Assembly: GCF_024970185.1 (NCBI RefSeq)
Contig: NZ_CP103965.1
Location: forward strand, 5,165,001 to 5,229,000
Direction: 5' to 3'
Source of the DNA: Pseudomonas sp. N3-W
Lineage (GTDB): Bacteria; Pseudomonadota; Gammaproteobacteria; Pseudomonadales; Pseudomonadaceae
Length of the DNA: 64,000 bases
A program made the position numbers and the translations under genes. Below, piece by piece: positions 6,557-64,000 of the stretch. The notes under the pieces were generated by a model. The model was given only the letters and a program-made list of their open reading frames with translations. It made no database searches and was not told the origin of the DNA. Each line of letters starts with the position of its first letter. Within the stretch, counting starts at the first letter, position 1.

Positions 6557-7632
6557 AAGGCTAGATCCTCAGGTGTGAATGTCATCTTGAATGAACGATA
6601 CGGAGCAAAATCGCTCGGCTTCATTCCCTGCATTTCTGTCAAACGTCCAATATTCTTGACCGCAGCCACGGCTGACGCGTCAAACGGACCGTCGCCACTG
6701 GACTTGAGCACGCTGACAGAAGTCACCGTACCGTCCGGCAACATGCCGATTTGCAACACGACCGACATACCCTTGCGTGCCGAAGGTGGACGAGCCCAAC
6801 CCTCTGCTGCACGAGAACGAATCAGGTCATCGAAACTACCCGCGACTTCGTCACCCTGCTCATCGGCCAAGGCCTGCTGGCGCTGCGGCGTGTCGGAAAG
6901 CAAATCTGCCAGGGCCTGAGCCTTTTTGTCCTCGGCGGATTTACGTGCCGCGTCCTGCGATTTTTTCTTCGCAGCATCGGCAGCAGCTTTCTTCTTCGCG
7001 TCTTCGGCGACTTTCTTCTTCGCCTCTTCAGCTTCAGCTTTCTTCTTGGCGTCTTCAGCGGCTTTCTTCTTCGCGTCTTCGACGATCTTTTTCTTCGCTT
7101 CGTCAGCGGCCGCTTTCTTGGCCTCTTCTTGCGCGGCTTCCTTGGCTTCTTCTTCAGCTTTCTTCTTGGCTATATCAGCCAATTGTTTCTGTTCTGCCTT
7201 TTTGGCTTCGGCGGTCTTCTTCGCGTCGTCGGCTTTCTTGGCTTCATCAGCCTTTTTCGCCTCGTCCGCTTTCTTCGACTCGTCGGCCTTCTTGGCTTCC
7301 TCGGCCTTTTGAGCCGCTTCTTCTTTCTTTTGTTCCGCAGCCTTCACCGCTTCCTGCTCGACCTTCTTCTGTTCCATCTGTTCGACTTCGGTTTGACGCG
7401 CAGCAGATTTCTGCGCTTCACCCGCAATCTTCTGATTGGTCTGGGTGGTCGCCCGACTTTTCGATTTCAGCTGGTACAGGGTCGCCTGGACAATCGGCTT
7501 GGCCGGCGGCAACTCAGGCGTCAGGGCAAAACTGACGAACAGCATGCCGAAAACCAGCACATGCAAGCCAATTGCCCAAACGCTAGGCCAGAAGTAGCTT
7601 TCCGAGGCTGTTGGCTCTCGTTGTTGCTGCAT
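6553..7632 (-). CDS. tolA: Tol-Pal system protein TolA
   Basis: An inner membrane protein that couples the TolQR motor to TolB and Pal. The 359-residue protein has one transmembrane helix near residues 18-37 and a long Ala/Lys/Glu-rich helical domain (about residues 65-245), made of degenerate repeats such as [13 protein letters not shown] globular C-terminal domain follows. The low-complexity domain produces Phe/Ser-rich open frames on the other strand, which are not genes. It overlaps tolR by 1 bp and tolB by 4 bp. Confidence 0.96.
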
Positions 7633-55543: not shown

Positions 55544-55767
55544 AGCCTCTGCCACAGCAATTACCTCACCACAGCAAGCACGTCACCACAGGTCGTCTCC
55601 AACCAAAAGCCAATGTGTACCCGCCACCGAGGCGCGGTATACTGCCGCGCCTTTTTAGCGTCGCGCCAGCTGCCCCGGCGTGCCTTGAAAGGTGCTTGCA
55701 ACCGACCGATACATCCAAGCTGCAAGCACCTTATTGAATGTTCCCGTCTTTTAGAGGAGCGCGACTC

Positions 55768-57291
55768 ATGACCGTGATCAAGCAAGACGACCTGATTCAG
55801 AGCGTTGCCGACGCCCTGCAGTTCATTTCCTATTACCACCCCGTGGATTTCATCCAGGCGATGCACGAAGCCTACCTGCGCGAAGAATCGCCAGCGGCCC
55901 GTGACTCCATGGCGCAGATCCTGATCAACTCGCGCATGTGCGCCACCGGCCATCGTCCGATCTGCCAGGACACCGGCATCGTGACCGTGTTCGTGCGTGT
56001 GGGCATGGACGTGCGTTGGGATGGTGCCACCATGGGCCTGGACGACATGATCAACGAAGGCGTGCGCCGGGCTTACAACCTGCCGGAAAACGTCCTGCGT
56101 GCCTCGATCCTCGCCGACCCGGCGGGCGCTCGCAAGAACACCAAGGACAACACCCCGGCCGTGATTCACTATTCCATCGTTCCGGGTAACACCGTGGAAG
56201 TGGACGTGGCTGCCAAGGGCGGCGGCTCCGAGAACAAGTCGAAAATGGCCATGCTCAACCCGTCCGACTCGATCGTCGACTGGGTTCTGAAGACCGTGCC
56301 GACCATGGGCGCCGGCTGGTGCCCACCGGGCATGCTCGGTATCGGCATCGGCGGCACCGCCGAGAAAGCCGCGGTCATGGCCAAGGAAGTGTTGATGGAA
56401 TCCATCGACATTCACGAGCTGAAAAAGCGTGGCCCGTCCAACCGTATCGAGGAGATGCGTCTGGAGCTGTTCGAGAAGGTCAACCAACTGGGTATCGGCG
56501 CCCAGGGCCTGGGTGGCCTGACCACCGTGCTCGACGTGAAAATCATGGACTACCCGACCCACGCAGCCTCGCTGCCGGTGTGCATGATCCCCAACTGCGC
56601 CGCCACCCGTCACGCCCACTTCGTGCTCGACGGCTCCGGCCCGGCGTCGCTGGAAGCGCCACCGCTGGACGCCTACCCGCAAATCGTCTGGGAAGCCGGC
56701 CCGTCGGCCCGTCGCGTCAACCTCGACACCCTGACCCCGGAAGACGTGCAGAGCTGGAAGCCGGGCGAAACCGTGCTGCTCAACGGCAAGATGCTCACCG
56801 GTCGCGACGCTGCGCACAAGCGCATGGTCGAGATGCTGAACAAAGGTGAAACCCTGCCGGTGGACCTCAAGGGTCGCTTCATCTATTACGTCGGCCCGGT
56901 TGATCCGGTGCGCGAAGAAGTGGTTGGCCCTGCCGGTCCGACAACTGCTACGCGGATGGACAAGTTCACCCGTCAGATCCTCGAGCAAACCGGCCTGCTG
57001 GGCATGATCGGCAAATCCGAGCGCGGCCCGACCGCGATCGAAGCGATCAAGGACCACAAAGCCGTGTACCTGATGGCCGTCGGCGGCGCGGCTTACCTGG
57101 TGGCGCAAGCCATCAAGAAATCCCGCGTTGTCGCGTTCGCCGAACTGGGGATGGAAGCCATCTACGAGTTCGACGTCAAGGACATGCCGGTCACCGTTGC
57201 GGTGGACAGCAAGGGTGAGTCGGTACACATCACCGGTCCTGCGATCTGGCAAAAGAAGATCAGTGAAAGCCTGGCGGTGGAAGTGCAGTAA
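55768..57291 (+). CDS. Class I fumarate hydratase (4Fe-4S)
   Basis: It interconverts fumarate and malate in the TCA cycle, with an oxygen-sensitive 4Fe-4S cluster. The 507-residue protein shows the cluster and active-site cysteines in TGHRPICQDTGIVTV and CMIPNCAATRH, and the family GGGSENKSKMAML. The start at 55768 is supported by GAGGAG 9 bases upstream. It has a strong terminator 17 bp after the stop. Confidence 0.95.
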   Translation: MTVIKQDDLIQSVADALQFISYYHPVDFIQAMHEAYLREESPAARDSMAQILINSRMCATGHRPICQDTGIVTVFVRVGMDVRWDGATMGLDDMINEGVRRAYNLPENVLRASILADPAGARKNTKDNTPAVIHYSIVPGNTVEVDVAAKGGGSENKSKMAMLNPSDSIVDWVLKTVPTMGAGWCPPGMLGIGIGGTAEKAAVMAKEVLMESIDIHELKKRGPSNRIEEMRLELFEKVNQLGIGAQGLGGLTTVLDVKIMDYPTHAASLPVCMIPNCAATRHAHFVLDGSGPASLEAPPLDAYPQIVWEAGPSARRVNLDTLTPEDVQSWKPGETVLLNGKMLTGRDAAHKRMVEMLNKGETLPVDLKGRFIYYVGPVDPVREEVVGPAGPTTATRMDKFTRQILEQTGLLGMIGKSERGPTAIEAIKDHKAVYLMAVGGAAYLVAQAIKKSRVVAFAELGMEAIYEFDVKDMPVTVAVDSKGESVHITGPAIWQKKISESLAVEVQ

Positions 57292-57346: not shown

Positions 57347-57443
57347 ATGTCTGACAAAAAGCGCTTGAACGGTCGCCGTTATCTCCCCCGACAGGTTCGC
57401 CATGCTATGGTGCCCGCCCGACTTTCTACCTGTTTGCGCCAGC

Positions 57444-59216
57444 ATGCTGCCGACTTCCCGTACCGTACGTTTGTCGTTGTATATCCTGTTGATTCTCGCC
57501 GGCACCGCCCTTGCCGCCGGCATCGCCATGCGTCACGCCGAGCATCAGGCGATGGAAGAGGATGCCGACCGCGCCAATCAGCAACTGGCGCTGTATGCCA
57601 ACTCCCTGCACTCGCTGATCGACCGCTACCGCGCCCTGCCCGCCGTACTGGCCCTGGACCCGCAACTGCGCAGCTCGCTCAGCGGCCCGATCAGCGCCGA
57701 GCAGCAAGACCTGCTGAACCGCAAACTGGAAAAGATCAACGGCGCCGCTAAATCCTCGACCCTGGAACTGCTCGACCGCACCGGCCTGGCCGTGGCCGCC
57801 AGCAACTGGCGCTTGCCCAGCAGTTACGTCGGTCACAACTATGGCTTTCGCCCCTACTTCAGCCAGACCAAAACCCAGGGCACCGGGCGCTTTTATGCGG
57901 TCGGCGTGACCAGCGGTATTCCGGGCTATTTCCTGTCCAGTGCGGTGACGGGCGATAACGACGAGTTCCTCGGCGCCATGGTGGTCAAACTGGAGTTCCC
58001 CGAACTCGAACACGAATGGAGCCTGGGCAGCGACACCCTGCTGGTCAGCGATGCCCGTGGCATCATCTTCATCGCCAACCAGCCGGGCTGGCGTTATCGC
58101 CATTTGCAGCCGCTGAACGCCGGCGATCACGCCGAGATCAAGGCCACTCGCCAATACGACAAACAACCGCTGACACCACTGGACTACCAGTCGCTGCGGC
58201 GCTTCGACGAGAACAGCGAATTGGCGCGGGTCGATGGCCCCGAAGGTTCGGCGCAGTACCTGTGGGAGTCCCTGCCGCTGACAGCCGAGGGCTGGACCCT
58301 GCACCTGCTGCGCCGCCCGCAGGTCGCCTTCGAAGACAGCCGCAACGCCGGGCTTGCTGCCGCGGGCGCGTGGCTGACACTGGTGTTCCTGGTGCTGTTC
58401 CTCAATCAGCGCTGGCGCCTGGCGAAGATGCGCCAACGCAGCCGCGAAGAGCTGGAGCAACTGGTGGAAGAACGCACTCGCGACCTGCGCACGGCGCAGG
58501 ACGGCCTGGTGCAATCGGCCAAACTTGCGGCGCTGGGGCAGATGTCGGCGGCGCTGGCCCATGAAATCAATCAACCACTGACCGCGCAGCGCATGCAGCT
58601 GGCGACCTTGCGTCTACTGCTTGATCACGGTCGTGTGGATGATGCATATAAAGCACTGAAACCGGTGGATGACATGCTGACCCGCATGGCCGCCCTCACC
58701 GGTCACCTGAAAACCTTCGCCCGCAAAAGCCCCAGCGGCCTGCGTGAGCGGCTGGACCTGGCGGCAGTGGTCGACCAATCCCTGCAACTGCTGGACGCGC
58801 GCCTGCGCGACGAAAACGTCAGCATCGTGTTGCACCTGACGCGCCCGGCCTGGGTGCGCGGCGATGCAATTCGCCTGGAACAGGTACTGATCAACCTGCT
58901 TCGCAACGCCTTGGATGCCATGCAGGACAAACCCTGCAAGCGCCTGCAAATCCGCCTCGAAGCCGATGAACAACTGTGGCTCCTGAGCGTCGCCGACAAC
59001 GGTGGCGGCATCGCCGAGGAACACCTGGCGAATGTGTTCGACCCGTTCTTCACCACCAAGCCGGTGGGCGATGGCCTGGGCCTTGGGCTGGCAGTATCGT
59101 TCGCCATTGCCCATGAATCCGGTGGCCGCTTGAGCGCCGCCAATCAACTGCAGGGCAGCGGTGCGGTGTTCACCCTGACCTTGCCGATTGATCTGGAGGC
59201 GCATCTGTCATGCTGA
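57444..59216 (+). CDS. Sensor histidine kinase, DctB/MifS type
   Basis: A 590-residue membrane kinase likely to sense a dicarboxylate (alpha-ketoglutarate in the MifS case). Two transmembrane helices (about residues 10-27 and 303-325) enclose a periplasmic double-Cache domain with YGFRPYFSQTKTQGTGRFYAVGVTSG. A coiled coil (EELEQLVEERTRDL) leads to the H box LAHEINQPLTAQ, then the N box NLLRNALDAM and the G boxes. It uses a start at 57444; an in-frame ATG at 57402 is also possible. Its stop overlaps the response regulator start by 7 bp. Confidence 0.92.
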   Translation: MLPTSRTVRLSLYILLILAGTALAAGIAMRHAEHQAMEEDADRANQQLALYANSLHSLIDRYRALPAVLALDPQLRSSLSGPISAEQQDLLNRKLEKINGAAKSSTLELLDRTGLAVAASNWRLPSSYVGHNYGFRPYFSQTKTQGTGRFYAVGVTSGIPGYFLSSAVTGDNDEFLGAMVVKLEFPELEHEWSLGSDTLLVSDARGIIFIANQPGWRYRHLQPLNAGDHAEIKATRQYDKQPLTPLDYQSLRRFDENSELARVDGPEGSAQYLWESLPLTAEGWTLHLLRRPQVAFEDSRNAGLAAAGAWLTLVFLVLFLNQRWRLAKMRQRSREELEQLVEERTRDLRTAQDGLVQSAKLAALGQMSAALAHEINQPLTAQRMQLATLRLLLDHGRVDDAYKALKPVDDMLTRMAALTGHLKTFARKSPSGLRERLDLAAVVDQSLQLLDARLRDENVSIVLHLTRPAWVRGDAIRLEQVLINLLRNALDAMQDKPCKRLQIRLEADEQLWLLSVADNGGGIAEEHLANVFDPFFTTKPVGDGLGLGLAVSFAIAHESGGRLSAANQLQGSGAVFTLTLPIDLEAHLSC

Positions 59217-60544
59217 ATTCGGTGATCGTGGTCGATGATGAAAGCAGCATCCGTAGCGCCGTCGAACAATGGCTGAGCCTGTCCGGGTTTGAGGTGCAGC
59301 TATTCAGCCGGGCCGATGAGTGCCTGGCGCAACTACCGGCGCATTTTCCCGGGGTGATTCTCAGCGACGTGCGCATGCCCGGCATGACCGGCCTTGAGCT
59401 GCTGGCCGAAGTGCAGCGCCGCGACCCCGACCTGCCGGTAATTCTGCTGACCGGTCACGGCGATGTGCCAATGGCGGTCGAAGCCATGCGCGATGGCGCC
59501 TATGACTTTCTGGAAAAACCCTTCAGCCCGGAAACGCTGCTGGGCAGCCTGCGTCGCGCGTTGGAAAAGCGCCGGCTGGTGCTGGAAAACCGCGCCCTGC
59601 ACGAACAGGCGGACAACCGCAGCAAACTCGACGCGACCCTGCTGGGGGTGTCCCGTGGTTTGCAGACGTTGCGCCGGCAAGTGCTGGACCTGGCAGCGCT
59701 GCCGGTCAACGTGCTGATTCGTGGCGAAACCGGCAGCGGCAAGGAACTGGTCGCCCGCTGCCTGCACGACTTCGGGCCTCGGGCCGACAAGCCGTTCGTG
59801 GCGCTGAACTGCGCGGCGATTCCCGAACAACTGTTCGAAGCCGAGTTGTTCGGTCACGAGAGCGGCGCATTCACCGGCGCCGCGGGTCGGCGCATCGGCA
59901 AGCTCGAATACGCCGACGGCGGCACGTTGTTTCTCGATGAAATCGAAAGCATGCCTTTGGCGCAGCAGGTCAAATTGTTGCGGGTATTGCAGGAACAGAA
60001 GCTGGAGCGACTGGGTTCCAATCAGAGTATTGCCGTGGACTTGCGCATTATTGCCGCGACCAAACCCGACTTGCTGGACGAAGCCCGCGCCGGGCGTTTT
60101 CGCGAGGACCTGGCGTATCGCCTGAACGTCGCGCAACTGCGTCTGCCCCCGCTACGCGAGCGTCGGGAAGACATTCCGCTGCTGTTCGACTCATTTGCAC
60201 ACAAAGCTGCCGAGCGCCTGGGCCGGACGTTCCCGCCGTTGAGCGGGCCGCAATTGAGCCATTTGTTGAGCCACGACTGGCCAGGCAACGTACGCGAACT
60301 GGCGAACGTCGCCGAGCGTCAAGTGCTGGGGCTCGACGAGCCGGAGCCTGCGGGCGTCGAACCGGGGCAATCCCTGGCCGCGCAGCAAGAAGCGTTTGAA
60401 GCCAATTGCCTGCGAGCGGCGCTGACCCGCCACAAGGGCGATGTGAAAGCGGTGCTGGAAGAGCTGCAACTGCCGCGCCGCACCTTCAATGAAAAGATGC
60501 AGCGCCATGGGTTGGCGCGCGAGATGTTCCTGCCTCATAGCTGA
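59210..60544 (+). CDS. Sigma-54-dependent response regulator, DctD/MifR type
   Basis: A 444-residue NtrC-family activator. Residues 1-125 form a receiver domain (phosphoacceptor Asp in ILSDVRMPG), then an AAA+ domain with Walker A GETGSGKEL and the RpoN-contacting loop GAFTGA, and a C-terminal Fis-type helix-turn-helix (KGDVKAVLEELQLPRRTFNEKM). It must act at a sigma-54 promoter with sites upstream; one such promoter lies in front of the permease gene 2.2 kb away. Confidence 0.95.
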   Translation: MLNSVIVVDDESSIRSAVEQWLSLSGFEVQLFSRADECLAQLPAHFPGVILSDVRMPGMTGLELLAEVQRRDPDLPVILLTGHGDVPMAVEAMRDGAYDFLEKPFSPETLLGSLRRALEKRRLVLENRALHEQADNRSKLDATLLGVSRGLQTLRRQVLDLAALPVNVLIRGETGSGKELVARCLHDFGPRADKPFVALNCAAIPEQLFEAELFGHESGAFTGAAGRRIGKLEYADGGTLFLDEIESMPLAQQVKLLRVLQEQKLERLGSNQSIAVDLRIIAATKPDLLDEARAGRFREDLAYRLNVAQLRLPPLRERREDIPLLFDSFAHKAAERLGRTFPPLSGPQLSHLLSHDWPGNVRELANVAERQVLGLDEPEPAGVEPGQSLAAQQEAFEANCLRAALTRHKGDVKAVLEELQLPRRTFNEKMQRHGLAREMFLPHS

Positions 60545-60722
60545 GTTTTGTGCTGCTTGTTCCGGCCTCATCGCGAGCAAGCTCGCTCCCACAGTGGGTC
60601 TGTGTACACCTGATCATTGTGGGAGATGTTCCTGCCTGGGAGCTGAGTTTTGTGCTGTTTTGACTGGCCTCTTCGCGGGCAAGCTGAACTGGTCAAGTAA
60701 TTCTGGACACCAGTTAAGGTTT

Positions 60723-61457
60723 TCACGCCGCCAGTTTCTCCATAGCTACCGGCGAACGGTAGTCGTTGTAGCTATGGAGTCTGACGTTGTTGTATCGCAT
60801 CACATAACGCTGCACATCCACTCGGGCTTCATACTCCGAGCTGTAGCCATCGTCTGGCACCCACTCTGACTTCAAGCTCCCAAAGAAACGCTCCATCGGG
60901 GCGTTGTCCCAGCACTCACCTTTACGACTCATGCTTTGCAGGAGTCCATGCTTGCGCATCTCATTCCTGAATTTATGGCTGGTGTATTGGCAACCTTGAT
61001 CGGAATGAAACAGCACCTCTTTTGGACGGCCTCGCAATTGGACCGCCATTCGCAGCGCCTCGCAGGTCAACGAGGCATCGGAAATCATTGAAAACGACCA
61101 CCCCACGATCCGGCGAGCGAACAGATCCAGAACCGCCGCGAAATACATCCAGCGCTTGCCGACCTTTATGTACGTTACATCGCCACACCACACCTGGTTG
61201 ATCGCCGTGACATCAAACTTGCGCTTGAGCACATGCGGCGCCACCAGCGCTTCTACGCCGGAAGATTTGTACTTGTGCCGCCGTCGCTGATGACTGGCAA
61301 CACCGGCTTCGCGCATCAAACTGCGAGCCATATGCCGCCCCACACGATGCCCTTTTGCCTGCAGCTCTTTGGAAAGGGTGCGAGACCCTGCGGACGCTCT
61401 GGATTCCTTATGATGCTCGACCAGCACGGCTTTAAGTTTCTCCCGCTCAGGTTTCAC
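60723..61457 (-). CDS. IS3 family transposase OrfB (DDE integrase domain)
   Basis: A DDE transposase. The frame is open from about 61600 and can be joined to orfA by a -1 frameshift; the coordinates given start at a GTG (61457). Catalytic Asp, Asp and Glu are in WCGDVTYI, VLFHSDQGCQYTS and NAPMERFFGSLKSE. The upstream part in the same frame, before the GTG, includes an HTH-21-like CRAFGVNRSSFYAW segment. Confidence 0.93.
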   Translation of the reverse strand: MKPEREKLKAVLVEHHKESRASAGSRTLSKELQAKGHRVGRHMARSLMREAGVASHQRRRHKYKSSGVEALVAPHVLKRKFDVTAINQVWCGDVTYIKVGKRWMYFAAVLDLFARRIVGWSFSMISDASLTCEALRMAVQLRGRPKEVLFHSDQGCQYTSHKFRNEMRKHGLLQSMSRKGECWDNAPMERFFGSLKSEWVPDDGYSSEYEARVDVQRYVMRYNNVRLHSYNDYRSPVAMEKLAA

Positions 61458-61555
61458 CTTGCCTTGGCGCTGACGCCAGGCGTAAAAGCTGCTGCGGTTG
61501 ACTCCAAACGCCCGACAGCAATTGTTGACGCCGTACTGCTCGTCCAGCTCATCGA

Positions 61556-61864
61556 TCAGCGAGAATGATCTTTGGAGTCCAAAAGCAGGAGAGCACTGGC
61601 CTTTTTTAGGATTTCAATGTCCAGGTCTTTTTGCCTGAGCAACGCTTTGAGCTGCTGAATCTCTCGCTGATCGGCGGTAATCGCCTTGGCCCCCACCGGG
61701 GTCGAGCCCAAGCGCTCTTTGCGAACCTGATCGACCCAACGGCGCAAGGCGGTAGGGCCAATATCCAGACTGGCACAGACTTCTGGAACTGACTGGCCTT
61801 CGTCCAGCACCATGCTGGCAGCCTTGAGCTTGAACTCACTGGAATAAGATTTACGCATATCCAA
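61556..61864 (-). CDS. IS3 family transposase OrfA
   Basis: A 102-residue DNA-binding protein of the IS3 orfA type: an HTH (KAASMVLDEGQSVPEVCASLDIG) and a leucine-zipper-like tail (IQQLKALLRQKDLDIEILKKA). The frame overlaps the orfB frame in the -1 phase. A slippery heptamer A AAA AAG lies at 61601-61607. Initiation may be at ATG 61864 or 61858. Confidence 0.9.
   Translation of the reverse strand: MDMRKSYSSEFKLKAASMVLDEGQSVPEVCASLDIGPTALRRWVDQVRKERLGSTPVGAKAITADQREIQQLKALLRQKDLDIEILKKASALLLLDSKDHSR
61601..61607 (-). other. Programmed -1 frameshift site of the IS (A6G)
   Basis: On the minus strand the heptamer AAAAAAG is in the right phase (CTA AAA AAG) for tandem slippage. The -1 frame is open from here through the orfB catalytic region, so an OrfAB fusion transposase can be made. 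Confidence 0.8.
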
Positions 61865-62633
61865 ACACCTCAGATTTGGGCGCCATCATAGCGCCCGATT
61901 GAAGTGTCCAAAATCATTAGGCCAGTTCAAGCCCGCTCCCACATTTTGGCTCTTCGGGGTTTTCGAGTTTTCTGGTTCCGACACAAATCTACTGTGGGAG
62001 CGAGCTTGCTCGCGATAGCGTCCTGCCAGTCAATATCTACATCAGTTGACAAACCGCTTTCGCGAGCAGGCTCGCTCCCACATTTGATCTGTGTACACCT
62101 GATCATTGTGGGAGATGTTCCTGCCTGGGAGCTGAGTTTTGTGCTGTTTTGACTGGCCTCTTCGCGGGCAAGCTCGCTCCCACATTTTGGCTCTTCGGGA
62201 TTTTCGAGTTTTCTGGTTCCGACACAAACCTACTGTGGGAGCGAGCTTGCTCGCGATAGCGTCCTGCCAGTCAACCTCTACATCAGCTGACAAACTGCTT
62301 TCGCGAGCAAGCTCGCTCCCACATTTGGTCTGTGTACACCTGATCATTGTGGGAGATGTTCCTGCCTGGGAGCTGAGTTTAGTGCTGTTTTGACTGGCCT
62401 CTTCGCGGGCAAGCCCGCTCCCACATTTTGGCTCTTCGGGATTTTCGAGTTTTCTGGTTCCGACACAAACCTACTGTGGGAGCGAGCTTGCTCGCGATAG
62501 CGTCCTGCCAGTCAATATCTACATCAGTTGATAAACCGCATTCGCGGGCAAGCCCGCTTCCACAGTGGTCCGGTGTACACGGATCAAATGTGGGAGCGGG
62601 CTTGCCCGCGAAGAGGCCGGTACAAACAACACA

Positions 62634-62649: not shown

Positions 62650-62696
62650 AGCGACTTTCCGCCCACTACCCCGCCACAACAAGCGGATTTCCGCTC
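62649..62696 (+). promoter_or_regulatory. Two candidate activator sites (UAS) upstream of kgtP
   Basis: AAGCGACTTTCCGCCC (62649-62664) and AAGCGGATTTCCGCTC (62681-62696) match at 13 of 16 positions and start 32 bp apart, about three helical turns. The second is a perfect inverted repeat (AGCGGA TT TCCGCT). From memory DctD-type activators bind GCGGAAATCCGC-like sites, which this contains on the other strand. The sites are 40-90 bp upstream of the -24 element. Confidence 0.6.
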
Positions 62697-62735: not shown

Positions 62736-62754
62736 GTTGGCACAGCTCCTGCTA
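62736..62754 (+). promoter_or_regulatory. Sigma-54 promoter of kgtP
   Basis: TTGGCACAGCTCCTGCTA carries GG (62739-62740) and GC (62751-62752) with exactly 10 bases between, and fits the consensus TGGCAC-N5-TTGC. The start of transcription should be near 62764, giving a leader of about 50 bases. Confidence 0.85.
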
Positions 62755-62815: not shown

Positions 62816-64000
62816 ATGGATAACTCCAATACCCTGCCTCTTGGGGCAGCTGCCGTGCTGGCCAAGCCAAGAACCACCACCAGCCGTATCAAATCGATTT
62901 TCAGCGGTTCGGTCGGCAACATGGTCGAGTGGTACGACTGGTACGTTTACGCCGCGTTCTCCCTGTACTTTGCCAAAACCTTTTTCCCTGCTGGTTCCAC
63001 CACCGCGCAATTGATGAACACCGCGGCGATCTTCGCCGTGGGCTTCCTGATGCGTCCGATCGGGGGCTGGCTGATGGGGCTTTATGCCGATCGCGTCGGC
63101 CGTAAAGCCGCGTTGATGGCCTCGGTCTACCTGATGTGCTTCGGCTCGCTGCTGATCGCGCTGAGCCCCGGTTATGAAACCATCGGCATTGGCGCGCCGA
63201 TCCTGCTGATCTTCGCCCGTTTGCTGCAAGGCCTGTCGGTCGGTGGCGAATACGGCACCTCGGCCACTTACCTGAGCGAAATGGCGACCAAGGAACGTCG
63301 CGGCTTCTACTCCAGCTTCCAGTACGTGACCCTGATTTCCGGCCAGCTCATCGCGTTGGCAGTATTGATCGTGCTGCAACAGGTACTGACCACCGAACAA
63401 CTGTACGCCTGGGGCTGGCGCATCCCGTTCGCCATCGGCGCGCTGTGTGCCGTGGTGGCGCTTTACCTGCGTCGTGGCATGGAAGAAACCGAGTCGTTCA
63501 CCAAGAAAGAGAAAGCCAAGGAAAGCGCCATGCGCACCTTGATGCGTCATCCCAAGGAACTGCTGACCGTCGTCGGCCTGACCATGGGTGGCACGCTGGC
63601 GTTCTACACCTACACCACCTACATGCAGAAATACCTGGTGAACACAGTCGGCATGAGCATCACCGACTCCACCAGCATTTCCGCCGCCACGTTGTTCCTG
63701 TTCATGTGCATACAGCCGCTGGTCGGCGCGCTGTCGGATAAAATCGGTCGCCGGCCGATCCTGATTGCCTTTGGCGTACTTGGTACGCTGTTCACCGTAC
63801 CGATCCTCATGACCTTGCATACCGTCCAGACCTGGTGGGGCGCGTTCTTCCTGATCATGGCGGCGCTGATCATCGTCAGCGGCTACACCTCGATCAACGC
63901 GGTGGTCAAAGCCGAACTGTTCCCGACTGAAATCCGTGCCCTGGGCGTCGGTTTGCCGTATGCACTGACCGTGTCGATTTTCGGCGGTACGGCCGAATAC
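62816..64000 (+). CDS. kgtP: Alpha-ketoglutarate permease KgtP (MHS family), 3' end outside window
   Basis: A proton symporter of the MFS metabolite:H+ symporter family. 395 codons are seen, with no stop. It has the family N-terminal segment IFSGSVGNMVEWYDWYVYAAFSLYF, the DRVGRK loop, RLLQGLSVGGEYGTSATYLSE, and the second DKIGRRP loop. The ATG at 62816 follows AAGGA 8 bases upstream. Its sigma-54 promoter and UAS sites fit control by the response regulator at 59210. A shadow frame on the minus strand is not a gene. Confidence 0.9.
   Translation, partial: MDNSNTLPLGAAAVLAKPRTTTSRIKSIFSGSVGNMVEWYDWYVYAAFSLYFAKTFFPAGSTTAQLMNTAAIFAVGFLMRPIGGWLMGLYADRVGRKAALMASVYLMCFGSLLIALSPGYETIGIGAPILLIFARLLQGLSVGGEYGTSATYLSEMATKERRGFYSSFQYVTLISGQLIALAVLIVLQQVLTTEQLYAWGWRIPFAIGALCAVVALYLRRGMEETESFTKKEKAKESAMRTLMRHPKELLTVVGLTMGGTLAFYTYTTYMQKYLVNTVGMSITDSTSISAATLFLFMCIQPLVGALSDKIGRRPILIAFGVLGTLFTVPILMTLHTVQTWWGAFFLIMAALIIVSGYTSINAVVKAELFPTEIRALGVGLPYALTVSIFGGTAEY

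What the first reader, a model, noticed from the sequence alone, without database searches (positions are those of the whole stretch)
60566..62620. A 241-bp tandem REP array with an IS3 element exactly excisable to restore the period
The anchor GTGTACAC recurs at 60602, 62091, 62332 and 62573. Two intervals are 241 bp. The first is 1489, and subtracting the 1245-bp IS plus one 3-bp target copy leaves 241 exactly. So the order of events is clear: REPINs were amplified as a 241-bp unit first, and the IS inserted later. Eleven REPs in 2 kb is unusual; REPINs are normally scattered singly. The array may change supercoiling or distance between the activator gene and kgtP.
Basis: seen in the sequence. 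Interest (0 to 1): 0.75.

Follow-up and report, generated by a model that had tools for sequence, protein, structure and literature searches.

The report
Tandem REPIN array with captured gene tail
Between two genes of a Pseudomonas lies a small stack of repeated hairpin DNA, each repeat also carrying a scrap of the neighbouring gene's end, later split by a mobile element that favours such hairpins; the ingredients are of known kinds and the neighbouring promoter looks undisturbed.

Summary
Three 241-bp units differ by 2.9-4.6%. The fourth anchor lies in the diverged terminal REPIN, not in a fourth unit.

'Unusual' fails: in 800 kb sampled from the same genome, 68 of 96 REP clusters are doublets and six have five or more REPs, up to 18; tandem REPIN clusters with flanks are published for SBW25 (PMC3116915). 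The IS belongs to a REP-preferring IS3 lineage (31 of 45 full-length copies inside a REP on a strict test), as published for ISPsy8 (PMC1525189).

Among 151 such spacers, only the window and G005 (322 bp x 4, with 202 nt of that gene) carry one. The kgtP control motifs lie downstream of the array at conserved distances, so an effect on kgtP is unlikely. Best reading: illegitimate duplication anchored at a REPIN, expansion, then IS insertion.

The parts
59210..60544 (+). NtrC-family response regulator gene (MifR/DctD-like), source of the captured tail
   Evidence: Response_reg + Sigma54_activat + HTH_8; ORF
60521..60569 (+). native gene tail (last codons and stop, 24 nt, plus 25 nt after it) copied in every unit
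60521..60622 (+). short first unit, 102 bp: native tail, one REP, REPIN loop up to GTGG
   Evidence: tail-to-tail spacing 102
60571..60592 (-). REP of the short first unit
60623..60671 (+). captured gene tail, copy 1 (41/49)
60671..60684 (-). left half of the REP split by the IS
60682..60684 (+). target copy AGC, left
60685..61929 (-). IS3-family insertion sequence, 1245 bp
   Evidence: IS3 transposase model; ends match at 21 of 30 bases; four full copies in the genome
60723..61457 (-). OrfB (DDE transposase); its frame is open back to 61613
   Evidence: rve
61556..61864 (-). OrfA (HTH_Tnp_1); A6G run at 61607 in the overlap with the OrfB frame
61930..61932 (+). target copy AGC, right
61993..62081 (.). 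REPIN of unit 1 (REP + at 61993, REP - at 62060, 67 bp apart)
62060..62300 (+). 241-bp unit 2, counted from its REP
62112..62160 (+). captured gene tail, copy 2 (41/49)
62162..62183 (-). REP A of unit 2 (its unit-1 counterpart holds the IS)
62234..62322 (.). REPIN of unit 2 (62234 +, 62301 -)
   Evidence: folds as one long hairpin
62301..62541 (+). 241-bp unit 3
62353..62401 (+). captured gene tail, copy 3 (40/49)
62541..62612 (.). terminal, undivided REPIN (62542 -, 62589 +, 47 bp apart) holding the fourth anchor
   Evidence: DNA fold -37.3 kcal/mol, z -11.78
62650..62663 (+). inverted repeat, putative activator site, -166 from kgtP
62682..62695 (+). inverted repeat, putative activator site, -134 from kgtP
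62738..62753 (+). sigma-54 type -24/-12 motif, -78 from kgtP
62816..64000 (+). kgtP-like MFS transporter gene (runs off the window)
   Evidence: best models PRK10406 and TIGR00883, both just under their cut-offs for the part in the window

Best explanation
A passive repeat array in the spacer between a response regulator gene and kgtP. SHOWN: three 241-bp units; each holds a REP, a REPIN and a copy of the gene's 3' end; a short 102-bp unit before them and an undivided REPIN after them; an IS3 element with open frames inside the first REP of unit 1, with a 3-bp target copy; kgtP control motifs untouched. INFERRED: the ancestor had one REPIN between stop codon and control region, as relatives such as L205 do. 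An illegitimate duplication joined the 5' edge of the REPIN's second REP (GTGGGAG) back to the gene's end (GCGCGAG) through the shared GAG, most simply by slippage or template switching at the hairpin; its unit would be the 102 bp still seen in front. A block of one REPIN length (139 bp = 241 - 102) was then gained in the copy, less likely lost from the first unit. Unequal recombination made three units. Last, a REP-preferring IS3 element copied itself into the loop of one REP. The array's own effect, if any, would be hairpins at the 3' end of the regulator's transcript and a recombination hot spot, not control of kgtP.
For: Units and divergence. Gene tail in each unit and junction CATTGTGGGAG|ATGTTCC. 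A single REPIN at the same place in relatives, e.g. L073, L009, L016; in L205 (G253) its loop CACAGTGGGTCTGTGTAC agrees with the window's short first unit. Apparently independent array in G005 (L067): 322 bp x 4, 202 nt of the same gene plus a REPIN, units differing by 2-5 of 322, junction just past the REPIN with no shared bases. Tail test: last 24 nt of the gene plus 25 following, sought in the rest of each of 151 spacers: 48/49 in L067, 41/49 in the window, next best 27/49. REPINs fold as long hairpins (z -11.78; z -6.65). IS target: 31 of 45 strict, 37 of 45 on at least one side; 3-bp copy in 40 of 45; AGC or GCT in 25 of 45. Sigma-54 motif at -72 to -86 in 148 of 150 relatives; both inverted repeats at the window's places in 117 and at least one in 139 of 150.
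Against: No close strain was available and no intermediate state was seen; the best regulator-gene matches were 85.7% over the gene among 70 loci and 88% over 319 nt among 398 genomes. Gene loss from the first unit instead of a 139-bp gain is not excluded. No gene end was recognised in the eight REP-bearing arrays of the 800-kb sample or in three further arrays (by eye, frames not checked by homology), so capture is not a general rule of REPIN arrays. 67 of 150 spacers show no REP match at all. No expression data.
Confidence: 0.72

Rival explanations
1. The array is a regulatory element: its hairpins or bound proteins change supercoiling or spacing and so tune kgtP.
For: It lies between the activator gene and its presumed target; the RNA fold of a unit is far stronger than shuffles.
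Against: Sigma-54 motif and paired inverted repeats are downstream of the array at conserved distances; the spacer ranges from 166 to 3698 bp in 150 relatives and 67 of them show no REP match; units differ by 3-5%.
Confidence: 0.1
2. The IS caused the amplification (insertion first, then IS-assisted duplication).
For: IS elements are tied to rearrangements in print (PMC11708052, passages); another copy in this genome (L002) has REP halves on both sides but no target copy, as after a deletion.
Against: Only unit 1 has the IS, with an intact AGC pair; the other three full IS copies differ by 1-3 of 1245 bases from the window copy while units differ by 7-11 of 241.
Confidence: 0.07
3. The units arose by repeated REPIN transposition (RAYT-driven) into the site and not by tandem duplication.
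For: Two Y1-transposase genes, the domain RAYTs have, lie elsewhere in the genome; 139 bp is about one REPIN period (133-136 in other arrays), so one REPIN gain is possible.
Against: Units match over their whole 241 bp including the non-REP gene tail.
Confidence: 0.12
4. Assembly artefact.
For: No reads could be examined.
Against: Genome is one contig of 6.67 Mb, 100% complete; units differ from each other at specific bases; a comparable array occurs at the same place in G005, also one contig.
Confidence: 0.03

Closest known systems
Tandem REPIN clusters of Pseudomonas fluorescens SBW25 (Bertels and Rainey 2011, PMC3116915; passages, section 12)
   Same: Near-identical REPINs repeated in tandem together with flanking sequence (16 such clusters), and other tandem REP arrays with up to 12 REPs.
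   Different: Here the repeated flank includes the end of the neighbouring gene, and an IS splits one REP. Whether any SBW25 cluster holds a gene end was not checked (figures and supplements not seen).
ISPsy8, IS3 family, P. syringae DC3000 (Tobes and Pareja 2006, PMC1525189; passages)
   Same: IS3 family, OrfA/OrfB, 3-bp target copy, insertion at the axis of a REP hairpin, four of five copies within REP clusters.
   Different: ISPsy8 is in a REP in 5 of 5 copies; this lineage in 31 of 45 on a strict test, and one of four copies in the own genome is outside a REP. Sequences were not compared.
IS481-type element in a tandem REP cluster of SBW25 (PMC11708052; passages)
   Same: An IS entering a REP inside a tandem REP array.
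   Different: IS481, only distantly related to IS3; no target copy in that event.
MifS-MifR / PA5530 alpha-ketoglutarate system of P. aeruginosa (PMC4482717; passages)
   Same: Two-component regulator, RpoN, KgtP-like transporter with -24/-12 promoter and repeats upstream.
   Different: By their locus numbers (PA5511/5512 and PA5530) the genes are not adjacent there; orthology not tested by sequence.

Membership tests
REPIN | two REPs in opposite orientation that fold into one hairpin | tested here: met
   pairs 67 bp apart at 61993/62060, 62234/62301 and 62475/62542, and a 47-bp pair 62542/62589 that shares a REP with the third; folds
REPIN | many dispersed copies in the genome, doublets dominant | tested here: met
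   68 of 96 clusters are doublets in an 800-kb sample
REPIN | mobilised by a RAYT | tested here: inconclusive
   two Y1_Tnp genes in the genome; none shown to act on this REP
tandem REPIN cluster | head-to-tail units including flanking sequence | tested here: met
IS3 family | OrfA with HTH, OrfB with DDE core, overlapping frames with a slippery run | tested here: met
   NF033516: OrfB 267.8 bits against a cut-off of 160, OrfA 56.7 (below it, covering the model's first part); A6G at 61607; that such a run is typical of IS3 is recalled
IS3 family | terminal inverted repeats and short target copy (3-5 bp, recalled) | tested here: met
   21 of 30 matching end bases; AGC
[quoted passage not shown]
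   31 of 45 strict, 37 of 45 on at least one side; own copy L003 outside a REP. A strong preference, not 100%
ISPsy8 | sequence identity with ISPsy8 | not tested
   reference sequence not fetched

The most novel reading that the evidence does not exclude
REPINs placed right behind a gene act as anchors for illegitimate tandem duplications that carry off the end of that gene, so that gene 3' ends are copied into intergenic arrays again and again. At this one spacer it happened, it seems independently, in two species with different units (241 bp with 49 nt around the stop codon; 322 bp with 202 nt of coding sequence), which would make REPINs a source of gene-tail copies able to recombine back into the gene.
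Probability: 0.3. Interest if true: 0.45.

Novelty: new member of a known kind. Interest (0 to 1): 0.27.

Why it matters
It is a readable record of how a REPIN cluster grows: junction, short first unit, diverged terminal REPIN and later IS are all preserved. The recurrence at one spacer in two species offers a small natural test of whether REPIN hairpins provoke duplications that spill into genes. It also adds genus-wide evidence that one IS3 lineage prefers the loop of REPs. It does not change any view of kgtP control.

Tried and rejected
Hot spot claim: tandem arrays in the regulator-kgtP spacer against other gaps of the same 43 loci. TRF gave 3 of 43 here and 9 arrays elsewhere against 203 gaps (p = 0.44); six of the nine overlap coding repeats by eye, leaving 3 of 203 (p = 0.068). 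Not shown; dropped as a claim.

Array as an exceptional object: rejected by the own-genome sample and by three further arrays.

Fourth anchor as a fourth unit: rejected, 19 differences in 60.

Gene-tail capture as a general property of REPIN arrays: no gene end was recognised in the arrays, by eye. The frames that one search prints as overlapping were not checked by homology; several lie inside the repeats, and the L303 array overlaps the start of a 354-nt frame by 22 nt.

First tail test looked at the wrong part of the last 40 nt and is not used; one search replaces it.

Terminator scan: five terminator-like matches against a mean of 2.3 in shuffles; two lie on captured tails; no sigma-70-like promoter. 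Not informative.

Full report
OBSERVATION. GTGTACAC is at 60602, 62091, 62332 and 62573. The inserted element is 60685-61929, 1245 bp, with AGC on both sides; leaving out the element and one AGC gives spacings 241, 241 and 241. The units compared over 241 positions differ by 11 (units 1-2), 7 (1-3) and 10 (2-3). The terminal stretch holding the anchor at 62573 differs from unit 3 at 19 of its first 60 bases: it is the undivided REPIN that closes the array, not a fourth copy. Ten intact REPs and one split by the IS give the eleven reported.

ANATOMY. In order: native gene end and a short unit of 102 bp (60521-60622); units 1 to 3; terminal REPIN (62541-62612); putative activator sites; sigma-54 motif; kgtP. 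REP orientations are minus, plus, minus in each unit, spaced 72, 67 and 102 bp; the 67-bp pair is the REPIN (four of the five other REP pairs of the window are 66-67 bp apart, one 57). The 102-bp step is where regular alternation breaks, and there lies a copy of the 3' end of the upstream gene: 49 nt including the last codons and the stop, 41, 41 and 40 matches of 49, against a best of 29 in 200 two-base block shuffles. The junction reads CATTGTGGGAG|ATGTTCC: the 5' edge of a REP joined to the gene end, with GAG common to both sources.

RELATIVES. I collected 166 loci (29, 48 of the 80, 89): 10 had no kgtP downstream in the stretch held, 156 gave a spacer, 150 were distinct. Spacers run from 166 to 3698 bp, median 297.5; REP matches per spacer are 0 in 67, 1 in 13, 2 in 65, and 3, 3, 5, 6, 8 in the other five. 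Two very long spacers were not scanned for periods; of the other 148, eight reached the repeat score of 40 (L067, L096, L095, L286, L102 at the limit, L231, L012, L077), built from different repeats by eye. A direct test for the gene tail (last 24 nt of the gene plus 25 after it, sought in the rest of each spacer) over the 150 and the window gives 48 of 49 in L067, 41 of 49 in the window and at most 27 in the others. L067 (G005) has units of 322 bp in four copies, 202 nt of the regulator's coding end plus a REPIN; copies differ by 2-5 of 322; the junction lies just past the REPIN and shows no shared bases. Different unit, different breakpoints and different REPIN make independence likely; it is an inference.

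HISTORY. Single REPINs sit at this place in relatives. In L205 (G253) the loop CACAGTGGGTCTGTGTAC agrees with the window's short first unit, and tail-to-REP distance is about the same (by eye), so the 102-bp unit probably keeps the form first duplicated. The difference 241 - 102 = 139 is about one REPIN period of three other arrays of this genome (133-136), so a REPIN-length block was most likely gained in the copy; loss from the first unit is not excluded.

HOW UNUSUAL. In 40 stretches of 20 kb of the same genome, 218 REPs make 96 clusters: 17 of one, 68 of two, 4 of three, 1 of four, 3 of five, 1 of six, 1 of ten, 1 of 18. Arrays of 9.1 x 136, 5.7 x 134 and 4.2 x 133 bp lie elsewhere. Bertels and Rainey report 16 tandem REPIN clusters including flanking sequence in SBW25 (PMC3116915, passages, section 12). 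The array is of a known kind. No gene tail was recognised in the other arrays (by eye).

THE IS. OrfA and OrfB match the IS3 transposase model; frames overlap with an A6G run at 61607; nothing suggests decay. Four full-length copies are in the genome, with 0, 1, 3 and 3 mismatches to the window copy. Three are bounded by REP halves (window and L004 with a 3-bp copy; L002 without one, in another tandem REPIN pair); L003 has a 3-bp copy but no REP. Across the genus (398 genomes, two candidates scored in each) I examined 53 loci including the four own copies; three full-length rows at 65% identity (G153 second copy, two of G235) were not fetched. Six of the 53 lacked a full-length pair of ends and two ended at contig ends; of the remaining 45, 31 have REP on both sides by a strict pattern, 37 on at least one, 40 have a 3-bp copy, and the copied bases are AGC or GCT in 25. 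The copies are related by descent and are not independent samples. The preference resembles ISPsy8 (PMC1525189, passages), of which 5 of 5 copies lie at the axis of a REP hairpin with 3-bp repeats.

EFFECT ON kgtP. The -24/-12 motif lies at -78, and two inverted repeats at -166 and -134. In the 150 relatives the motif is at -72 to -86 in 148 (L032 and L035 differ); both repeats are at the window's places in 117 and at least one in 139. The arrays seen lie upstream of them. A two-component regulator, RpoN and a KgtP-like transporter are linked in P. aeruginosa (PMC4482717, passages); that the inverted repeats are this regulator's sites is inference. The simplest view is that the spacer behind the stop codon tolerates growth because nothing of the promoter lies in it.

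ORDER OF EVENTS. IS last is supported by its presence in one unit only, by an intact target pair, and by the contrast of divergences (IS copies up to 3 of 1245; units 7-11 of 241). The last point is not a clock: a donor copy can be older than its offspring, and conversion among units is possible.

VERDICT. Observation confirmed; interpretation partly supported; a new member of a known kind, with the twice-seen gene-tail capture as its one point of interest.

Noticed in passing
L067 (G005), spacer after the regulator gene: Apparently independent 322-bp x 4 array whose units carry 202 nt of the regulator's coding end plus a different REPIN.
   Followed up: yes
L095, L077, L012: Same spacer filled by 114-138 bp tandem units of another palindromic repeat (CCCTCTCCC / GGGAGAGGG type), not REPINs.
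   Followed up: partly
L102: Same spacer holds a run of short GCGGTGTNC-type repeats between two copies of a CCGGCTTTAGCCGG-like palindrome.
   Followed up: no
L068 and L070: The same spacer holds whole genes in two species: a long RHS-like frame (L068) and an Hsp70-like plus J-domain-like pair (L070); names by eye, recalled.
   Followed up: no
L002:1340-2770: Another copy of the IS sits in a tandem REPIN pair with facing REP halves on its two sides and no target copy, as if the REPIN loop had been lost with or after insertion.
   Followed up: partly
L326:10313-11490 and L314:1645-2450 (own genome): An 18-REP array of period 136, and an array of period 86 with nine same-strand REPs and one opposite.
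   Followed up: partly
window 6961-7329: Overlapping short-period repeats (12-75 bp) read by TRF.
   Followed up: no
window 55738-57291, 57402-60544 and 62816-64000: Sensor kinase, NtrC-type regulator and KgtP-like transporter in a row, with a fumarase-like frame upstream (by eye, recalled); resembles a MifSR-like alpha-ketoglutarate unit (PMC4482717, passages); orthology not tested.
   Followed up: partly
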